A stretch of 54,687 nt of DNA. Source: Candidatus Gastranaerophilales bacterium (GTDB lineage Bacteria; Cyanobacteriota; Vampirovibrionia; Gastranaerophilales; Gastranaerophilaceae). How positions within the stretch are numbered: the first letter of the stretch is position 1; every line of letters starts with the position of its first letter. This document shows positions 50,149 through 52,187 of the stretch, one piece after another. The position numbers and the translations under genes were made by a program. Below the pieces are notes generated by a model. That model saw only the letters and a list, made by a program, of their open reading frames with translations. It was not told the DNA's origin and made no database searches. The stretch is from the NCBI GenBank assembly GCA_947587615.1, contig CANPYC010000013.1, forward strand, positions 1 to 54,687. The letters run 5' to 3'.

Positions 50149-50256
50149 CTATTGATACAATACGCTGATTATAGCCGTAATTCCAACCATCCAGGCAACA
50201 AGAACAATAGTTAAAATAAAAACTATAATCTTCTTATGTCTTCTAAAAAATTCCAT
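50149..50256 (-). CDS. 35-residue single-span membrane protein
   Basis: A small gene on the minus strand encoding a basic head (MEFFRRHKK) and one hydrophobic span of about 24 residues (IIVFILTIVLVAWMVG and on), ending LYQ. A clear ribosome binding site AGGGAGA stands about 4 bases before the ATG, and its stop is 7 bases before the M23 peptidase start, so the two genes are probably cotranscribed and coupled. No homologue is known to me. The good ribosome binding site and the complete TM pattern make it a likely real gene. Confidence 0.7.
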   Translation of the reverse strand: MEFFRRHKKIIVFILTIVLVAWMVGITAIISVLYQ

Positions 50257-50345: not shown

Positions 50346-52187
50346 CTATTTTATTGAACAGTTTTTATCATCTGTATCAATAAACCCGTCAAAATTATTA
50401 TCAATTCCGTCACTGCAAGAGTTTTTCGACTCAAAACTTTCAGCTTTAGGAAAATGATAAAGATATTTTTTATCAATAGAATTAAACAAATATAAAAAAT
50501 AATCCCGATAAAACTTCGCAATTTCGCTGTTTTTAATCATTATCATATTTTCATCGTTTTTATAAAATCCGCTTTTTGAAAAATTACAGCTGCCGAAAAT
50601 TAATATCTTCGAGTCGATTTCAATTGTTTTTTCATGATTTTTACCGCCCCAATTTTCAACTATTGTTGGAATATCTGCCCTTCTTAATCTGTTTGTTCTT
50701 GCTGAAAACTTCAAAGCGGAAGAAGCGTCTAAAATTATTGCAATTTTTATACCTTTTTGTTTTAAATTTATAAGTTCATCAATCAAATTATTATCAGTTA
50801 AAAAGAACGCAGAAATTAATATTTCCTCTTTTGCGTTTTTAATATTTTTCAAAATTAACTCAGCGAAAATATCATCCTCGGGAGAAAAATAAACTTCAAT
50901 TTCACTATCATCAAGCTTAAGCGCTTTATTTGAATTTTTCTTCTTCTTTTTAGAAAAATTTAGTTCATACATTTTATCAAATTCATTTTTATAATAATTT
51001 GCAATTTCATTTGAATTAATAATCGCAGCTATATTTGAATTATACCCTCCTACGCCGCTTGGAGAAATATTTGTAGAACCCGTTAAAACTTTTTGATTAT
51101 CAAAAATAAAAAATTTATTATGCATAATCGAGCTTGCGCTATCCGTTTTTGAAGAAAATTCTTTGTTGAAAGTTATTGTATCGGGGTAAATTTTATAGCC
51201 TTCCGGGCTATAATCCGTTATTGTTCTTATCTTTACACCTCTTTGCTTCGCATTTTTAAGCGCCGTTATTATCTCATCTTCATCATTAATTCCATAAATT
51301 GCAATGTCTATCGACTCTTTAGCGCTATTAATCTCATGAATTATTCTTTTACAAATATCCGTTTTGCAATTTGAATCAGGAGCAGTGTTTTCAAGCGGAT
51401 TGATTAAATATAGTTCAATATTTGAAAATTTTTTATATTGAGATTTTGAATAAATTGAATTATTTTTGAAATCTTTAAAAAATACTTCCTCATCTGCAAA
51501 GTTATGAATATGATTAGATTTAAACATATTATTAAAACAAAATTTACATAAATCAAAATGTTGGAATTTAGACCCGACAAGCTCTCCTTGTGCGCTAAGC
51601 TTGGCATATTTACAACTCAAATTATGAACAACATTTGTTTTTAAATTCAAAAGGTAAAATTTAATTTCCGATAATTTTTGTGCATTTATCCTTGCTTGTT
51701 TGAGATTTTGAAAGTTAAAATCTTCAATATTGTTGCTGTCATTATTAATATAGCCCAGCCCGTTTTCCAAAAGTGTCTTTGTGTAATCATCAGAGTTTAC
51801 TTTAAATTCAATTGTGCGATATTTTGTATCTTTATAAACATCTTTTCCAAATTTCACAACTAAAACATTTTTATTTTCAAGATAATATTTAGCCCAGTCC
51901 CTCGCCAGATAACCTGTTTTTAAATAATCCTCAATTGTCATATCAAGTCTTTTTGCTTCATATAGCGAGTGTTTCGTTTTAAAAGGATGGAAAGCGCTGA
52001 TGTGTTCTAATGTAAACAATTCATCATTGTCAATTTTATTGTTATTGTTGATATCAATATAAAATTTATCCGCTTCAACAACCTTCAAAACCTTATGAAA
52101 AGAGGGCTTTTGTTCTTTTGGCAAAAGAAAAGCACCAAGTAAAAATATGAGGAAAAGTATAAATATTTTAATAATTTTAATTTTCAT
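50346..52187 (-). CDS. Multidomain exported nuclease: SNase-like, zinc site, two PLD domains, EF-hand loops
   Basis: A 613-residue exported protein. The N-terminal span (about residues 5-22) is followed by an SNase-like region (HKVLKVVEADKFYID; ARDWAKYYLENKNVLVVKFG) with a calcium-loop-like insertion D45-x-N47-x-N49 to E56. Next comes an Ada-like zinc motif (VHNLSC192 and C214-K-F-C217). Two phospholipase D nuclease domains follow, with complete HKD motifs: H356-N-K358 to D363 and H518-E-K520 to D525. The C-terminus has a Cys-flanked DGIDNNFDGFIDTDD repeat. PLD domains of this type cleave phosphodiesters in DNA, RNA or lipid; the real substrate is unknown. No clear ribosome binding site. Confidence 0.8.
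   Translation of the reverse strand: MKIKIIKIFILFLIFLLGAFLLPKEQKPSFHKVLKVVEADKFYIDINNNNKIDNDELFTLEHISAFHPFKTKHSLYEAKRLDMTIEDYLKTGYLARDWAKYYLENKNVLVVKFGKDVYKDTKYRTIEFKVNSDDYTKTLLENGLGYINNDSNNIEDFNFQNLKQARINAQKLSEIKFYLLNLKTNVVHNLSCKYAKLSAQGELVGSKFQHFDLCKFCFNNMFKSNHIHNFADEEVFFKDFKNNSIYSKSQYKKFSNIELYLINPLENTAPDSNCKTDICKRIIHEINSAKESIDIAIYGINDEDEIITALKNAKQRGVKIRTITDYSPEGYKIYPDTITFNKEFSSKTDSASSIMHNKFFIFDNQKVLTGSTNISPSGVGGYNSNIAAIINSNEIANYYKNEFDKMYELNFSKKKKKNSNKALKLDDSEIEVYFSPEDDIFAELILKNIKNAKEEILISAFFLTDNNLIDELINLKQKGIKIAIILDASSALKFSARTNRLRRADIPTIVENWGGKNHEKTIEIDSKILIFGSCNFSKSGFYKNDENMIMIKNSEIAKFYRDYFLYLFNSIDKKYLYHFPKAESFESKNSCSDGIDNNFDGFIDTDDKNCSIK

What the first reader, a model, noticed from the sequence alone, without database searches (positions are those of the whole stretch)
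50346..52187. Exported nuclease combining SNase-like, zinc, EF-hand and two PLD domains
I know of PLD nucleases and SNases as separate or simply fused proteins, but the order signal - SNase-like with calcium loop - Ada-like zinc motif - HKD - HKD - DGIDNNFDG calcium repeat is unusual. Both HKD motifs are intact. It could act on extracellular DNA for nutrient or biofilm use, or as an interbacterial toxin. The SNase part lacks obvious catalytic Arg/Glu positions and may serve only in binding.
Basis: partly seen in the sequence, partly recalled or inferred. Interest (0 to 1): 0.6.

Follow-up and report, generated by a model that had tools for sequence, protein, structure and literature searches.

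The report
Membrane-anchored double-PLD nuclease with dead SNase
A near-universal gene of the gut bacterial order Gastranaerophilales encodes a membrane-anchored, PLD-type (probably nucleic-acid-cutting) enzyme that still carries a decayed SNase domain, and it has mobile cousins with a live-looking SNase domain that come paired with an SspD-like gene.

Summary
Window 50346-52187 (minus strand) encodes a 613-aa protein with this order: N-terminal hydrophobic anchor; SNase-fold domain with an EF-hand-like insert; H-C-C-C metal site; two PLD domains with both HKD motifs intact; C-terminal acidic Cys-flanked Ca-type loop. Homologues occur in 275 of 287 genomes of its order. The SNase fold is confirmed (model Z about 13), but its catalytic residues are lost in this lineage. 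The PLD part is by sequence closest to Nuc/MitoPLD/NucT. I read it as an inner-membrane-anchored periplasmic nuclease with one composite HKD active site; the SNase, metal and Ca elements serve binding or stability. An interbacterial toxin is unlikely for this copy: vertical inheritance, no immunity gene, envelope-gene context (YdjC deacetylase, M23, LptD). A lipid/glycan phosphodiesterase remains the main rival. Following the family further: horizontally spread paralogues with a cleavable-type signal peptide and intact SNase residues sit tail-to-tail with an SspD-like PAPS-reductase gene (31 of 35 SspD-like genes), forming a cassette with conserved outer ends and a divergent centre, once on a Mu-like phage contig. 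That cassette is the more novel part. I found no paper on either.

The parts
50346..52187 (-). whole gene, 613 aa
   Evidence: ORF, homologues in 275/287 order genomes
52125..52187 (-). N-terminal hydrophobic helix (residues 1-21), probable signal anchor
   Evidence: sequence; AF2 helix 2-21
51684..52112 (-). SNase-fold domain (residues 26-168), catalytic residues lost
   Evidence: separate AF2 model, Z about 13 to SNase and SND1; residues
52020..52055 (-). EF-hand-like loop DINNNNKIDNDE (residues 45-56) inserted in the SNase domain
   Evidence: D45 and E56 35/35 in homologues
51528..51665 (-). metal-site segment, H188-C192-C214-C217 (residues 175-220)
   Evidence: conservation; fold not tested alone
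50958..51440 (-). first PLD domain (residues 250-410)
   Evidence: PF13091, structure match
51069..51122 (-). HKD motif 1: H356 K358 D363 ... G370 S371 N373
   Evidence: invariant or nearly so in 36 homologues
50448..50921 (-). second PLD domain (residues 423-580)
   Evidence: PF13091 second stretch, Nuc alignment
50583..50636 (-). HKD motif 2: H518 K520 D525 ... G532 S533 N535
   Evidence: Nuc alignment
50358..50417 (-). C-terminal acidic Cys-flanked loop CSDGIDNNFDGFIDTDDKNC (residues 591-610)
   Evidence: both Cys 36/36; weak match to NF033662 below its cut-off

Best explanation
It is a membrane-anchored, periplasm-facing PLD-superfamily nuclease. The two PLD halves of one chain form the pseudo-dimer that Nuc and NucT build from two chains, giving one active site with two His-Lys pairs that would cut phosphodiester bonds through a phospho-histidine intermediate, without a catalytic metal. 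The N-terminal SNase-fold domain has lost its catalytic residues and, with the H-C-C-C metal site and the two Ca-type loops, would bind substrate or stabilise the protein. Shown here: domain make-up, conservation, predicted fold, loss of SNase residues, core inheritance. Inferred: location (diderm with LptD), nucleic acid as substrate, covalent chemistry, binding role of the SNase part.
For: Both HKD motifs conserved across the order. PLD profile closest to Nuc, MitoPLD/Zucchini and NucT, HKD2 followed by a Nuc-type GSxNFS...KNxEN stretch. The model over 250-601 matches two-HKD enzymes: 7e0m PLD Z 35, PLD3/PLD4 5' exonucleases Z about 34. SNase fold Z about 13; no core member keeps the R35, D40 and E43 equivalents together, all 12 paralogues with a signal peptide and this domain do. 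Near-universal. NucT is a periplasmic membrane-associated, cation-independent nuclease that prefers ssDNA and RNA (PMC5714352); PLD3 is made as a type II membrane protein and is an exonuclease (PMC10783504).
Against: No substrate was tested. The core gene's neighbours are envelope-type genes: YdjC-like deacetylase directly upstream in 23 of 40 genomes outside the genus, a GT2 nearby on the other strand in 18; M23 peptidase and LptD in the genus. That suggests a lipid or glycan substrate as easily as DNA. The best single structure match is an enzyme titled phospholipase D.
Confidence: 0.6

Rival explanations
1. Envelope enzyme: a periplasmic phospholipase/transphosphatidylase or glycan phosphodiesterase acting with YdjC deacetylase, GT2, M23 and LptD-type genes.
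For: Neighbour genes; two-HKD phospholipase 7e0m is the top structure match, PssA also matches.
Against: The sequence profile scores Nuc, MitoPLD and NucT many orders of magnitude better than 7e0m or PssA; an SNase domain with intact residues is fused to the same PLD core in paralogues. MitoPLD itself is named a cardiolipin hydrolase, so the sequence argument is not absolute.
Confidence: 0.22
2. Competence or DNA-uptake nuclease that processes incoming DNA at the membrane, like the role proposed for NucT.
For: Location and family resemble NucT (PMC5714352); ComEC is present in 55 of 56 relatives.
Against: ComEC is also present in families that lack the nuclease, and in E. coli, so there is no link; no competence gene is adjacent.
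Confidence: 0.1
3. Interbacterial toxin or effector.
For: Exported nuclease make-up; mobile paralogues form a mosaic cassette.
Against: This copy is a core, vertically inherited gene with stable neighbours and no immunity-like partner; none of 40 core orthologues has the SspD partner.
Confidence: 0.05

Closest known systems
Nuc (pKM101, 1byr) and NucT (Helicobacter) PLD endonucleases
   Same: PLD fold, HxK(x)4D(x)6GSxN, KNxEN-type stretch, exported or membrane-associated
   Different: Those have one PLD domain per chain and dimerise; this has two in one chain plus SNase, metal and Ca-type parts
PLD3/PLD4 lysosomal 5' exonucleases
   Same: Two HKD motifs in one chain, N-terminal membrane anchor, close structure (Z about 34)
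   Different: About 15% identity, eukaryotic, no SNase domain
Staphylococcal nuclease / SND1 SN-like domains
   Same: SNase fold; SND1-like loss of catalytic residues (SND1 comparison from own knowledge)
   Different: EF-hand-like insert and fusion to a double PLD core
SspD (Ssp DNA phosphorothioation; partner of paralogues only)
   Same: Partner protein matches PADLOC SspD at E 1e-82 with the SGGKDS motif
   Different: No SspB/DUF4007 found in 12 genomes (uninformative control); the partner is absent next to the window gene

Membership tests
PLD superfamily, nuclease (Nuc/NucT) branch | HxK(x)4D(x)6GSxN in both halves | tested here: met
PLD superfamily, nuclease (Nuc/NucT) branch | closest by sequence to nucleases rather than lipid enzymes | tested here: met
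PLD superfamily, nuclease (Nuc/NucT) branch | NCBIfam NucT curated cut-off | tested here: not met
   74 bits against 297: a relative, not NucT itself
PLD superfamily, nuclease (Nuc/NucT) branch | nuclease activity | not testable with these tools
   needs purified protein
Staphylococcal nuclease (SNase) | SNase fold | tested here: met
   Z about 13 on a predicted model
Staphylococcal nuclease (SNase) | Pfam PF00565 match of this protein | tested here: not met
   no match; met by distant members
Staphylococcal nuclease (SNase) | catalytic Arg35, Asp40, Glu43, Arg87 | tested here: not met
   T59, S64, H67, Y123 at those positions
Ada-type zinc domain | Ada family match or fold | tested here: inconclusive
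   H-C-C-C conserved, no Ada match among families listed, segment not folded alone
Acidic double-disulfide repeat NF033662 | curated score | tested here: not met
   21.6 bits against 41
Polymorphic/interbacterial toxin | mobile, variable, with immunity gene | tested here: not met
   core gene, no partner
DISARM DrmC / DpdK | curated score and defence neighbours | tested here: not met
   63 bits against 133 for DrmC, 25 against 100 for DpdK; neighbours are rplS, M23, LptD

The most novel reading that the evidence does not exclude
The window gene is the chromosomal, SNase-dead counterpart of a previously undescribed mobile two-gene conflict cassette: an exported SNase-PLD-PLD nuclease placed tail-to-tail with an orphan SspD-like ATP pyrophosphatase, whose outer ends (signal peptide plus SNase, and SspD N-terminus) stay 83-89% identical while the centre diverges, found once on a phage contig and present in up to seven SspD-like copies per genome.
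Probability: 0.3. Interest if true: 0.75.

Novelty: new variant of a known kind. Interest (0 to 1): 0.5.

Why it matters
A core gene of a largely uncultivated gut lineage is given a testable function, and it shows an SNase domain kept as a non-catalytic part next to a live-looking PLD core. The related SspD-paired cassette, if it is a defence or conflict system, would join an exported nuclease to phosphorothioate-type chemistry in a way not described in the papers I could search.

Tried and rejected
Literature: Gastranaerophilales + nuclease gave only surveys by title and abstract, Melainabacteria + phospholipase D nothing, SspD + phospholipase D one BREX paper whose passages shown do not describe this pair. 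Phage and plasmid collections hold only the PLD part. ComEC distribution is uninformative. PurH is present, so no sign of purine auxotrophy from that gene. A DUF4007/SspB search in 12 genomes found nothing, but no control rang, so absence is not shown. The tree of the PLD core does not resolve whether the core form descends from the mobile form or the reverse. A candidate immunity gene, the 35-aa ORF 50149-50256, was rejected: it lies 7 bases before the M23 gene and is a conserved single-TM protein. Distances between the two catalytic His in the model could not be measured.

Full report
Observation. The ORF 50346-52187 on the minus strand encodes 613 aa. The window is contig C13 of a 2.13-Mb, 99.5% complete genome in which the gene is single copy. 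The nearest named relative found is a Candidatus Gastranaerophilales MAG.

Anatomy. Residues 2-21 form a hydrophobic helix without an obvious signal-peptidase site. Residues 26-168 form the SNase domain: Pfam misses it here, but relatives L039, L040 and L042 pass the PF00565 cut-off, and the domain modelled alone (pLDDT 88, pTM 0.83) matches SNase and SND1 at Z about 13, rmsd 2.7-3.9 A over 119-124 residues. Loop 45-56 (DINNNNKIDNDE) fits an EF-hand loop; D45 and E56 are kept in all 35 members that have it. H188-C192-C214-C217 is a likely metal site. PLD domains span about 250-410 and 423-580, with both HKD motifs intact and conserved. The tail C591-C610 is an acidic Ca-type loop, with both Cys in 36 of 36. 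The full model has mean pLDDT 90 but pTM 0.65, so the placing of the domains relative to each other is less sure. Its PLD part matches 7e0m (Z 35.4) and PLD3/PLD4 (Z about 34).

SNase decay. Positions equivalent to SNase R35, D40, E43 and R87 are T59, S64, H67 and Y123 here. No core orthologue keeps R35, D40 and E43 together. All 12 paralogues of the second class that carry this domain do, and so do the stand-alone SNase proteins L047, L048 and L050. The equivalences rest on the alignments and on my own knowledge of SNase numbering.

Distribution. 275 of 287 sampled order genomes (38 of 44 genera) have a match. Outside the order, sampled phylum members match only in the PLD part. In the genus the order RbgA - rplS | nuclease - M23 is kept in nearly all genomes examined; the longer locus L031 also keeps LptD next to M23. 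Outside the genus, 23 of 40 orthologues lie directly downstream of a YdjC-like deacetylase (PF04794) on the same strand, and 18 of 40 have a GT2 gene nearby on the other strand; two keep the rplS/M23 arrangement; none has an SspD-like neighbour.

Function. By sequence profile the PLD core is nearest to Nuc (2e-23), MitoPLD (9e-22) and NucT (1e-16); phospholipase 7e0m is at 2e-7 and PssA at 3e-5. I therefore favour a nucleic-acid substrate (0.6), with an envelope lipid or glycan substrate as the main rival (0.22) because of the neighbours. NucT gives a model for a periplasmic membrane-associated PLD nuclease implicated in purine salvage and transformation (PMC5714352).

The mobile cousins. Some genomes hold extra copies with a cleavable-type signal peptide (such as SIIPVSA-S) and an intact SNase site. 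Their PLD cores are 80-96% identical between some genera or species (L065/L068 94, L039/L071 96, L066/L067 80) while core orthologues between genera are about 40-60%, which indicates horizontal spread. They sit tail-to-tail with a PAPS-reductase-family protein that matches PADLOC SspD at 1e-78 to 1e-82. In 117 order genomes, 35 strong SspD-like genes were found; 31 are tail-to-tail with a PLD nuclease, 25 by coordinates and six by reading the sequence. Three have no nuclease nearby in the stretch held, and one is a tandem second copy. Shorter SNase-less nucleases pair in the same way (L084, L129, L132). Eight aligned cassettes show 83-89% identity over the nuclease 5' end, about 87% at the SspD start, mostly 55-66% in between, and much lower identity in the flanks. 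A viral contig, L136, carries the pair near a Mu-type portal gene and DNA methylases. Whether this is defence, a toxin pair or DNA modification is open; I did not establish its function.

Verdict. The finding is correct in anatomy, partly right in interpretation, and a new variant of a known kind. The SspD-paired cassette is the more surprising lead.

Noticed in passing
L078, L079, L080-L086, L088, L089, L122-L125, L129, L132-L136: Tail-to-tail cassette of a PLD nuclease (often with intact SNase residues) and an SspD-like gene, with conserved outer ends and a divergent centre; 31 of 35 SspD-like genes are paired this way.
   Followed up: partly
window 50149-50256, minus strand: Unannotated 35-aa single-TM protein MEFFRRHKKIIVFILTIVLVAWMVGITAIISVLYQ, strongly conserved in the genus, just before the M23 gene.
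   Followed up: partly
L026, L029, L033, L052, L054, L062, L064 and others: Core nuclease directly downstream of a YdjC-like deacetylase in 23 of 40 genomes outside the genus.
   Followed up: partly
L083 and L086: About 6 kb of 96-97% identical DNA, in three blocks, shared between two genera beside the cassette; a D5_N primase-like gene lies next to it.
   Followed up: no
L129 2328-4695: Three SspD-like genes in tandem next to one nuclease, in a genome of the same genus as the window.
   Followed up: no
L090 3905-6342 (Burkholderia anthina plasmid): A PLD family gene next to a PAPS reductase family gene in the same direction, a possible distant parallel.
   Followed up: no
L015 1294-2802: One genus member has a truncated copy (502 aa open frame, one TAG inside the match), so the gene may be lost or mis-assembled there.
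   Followed up: no
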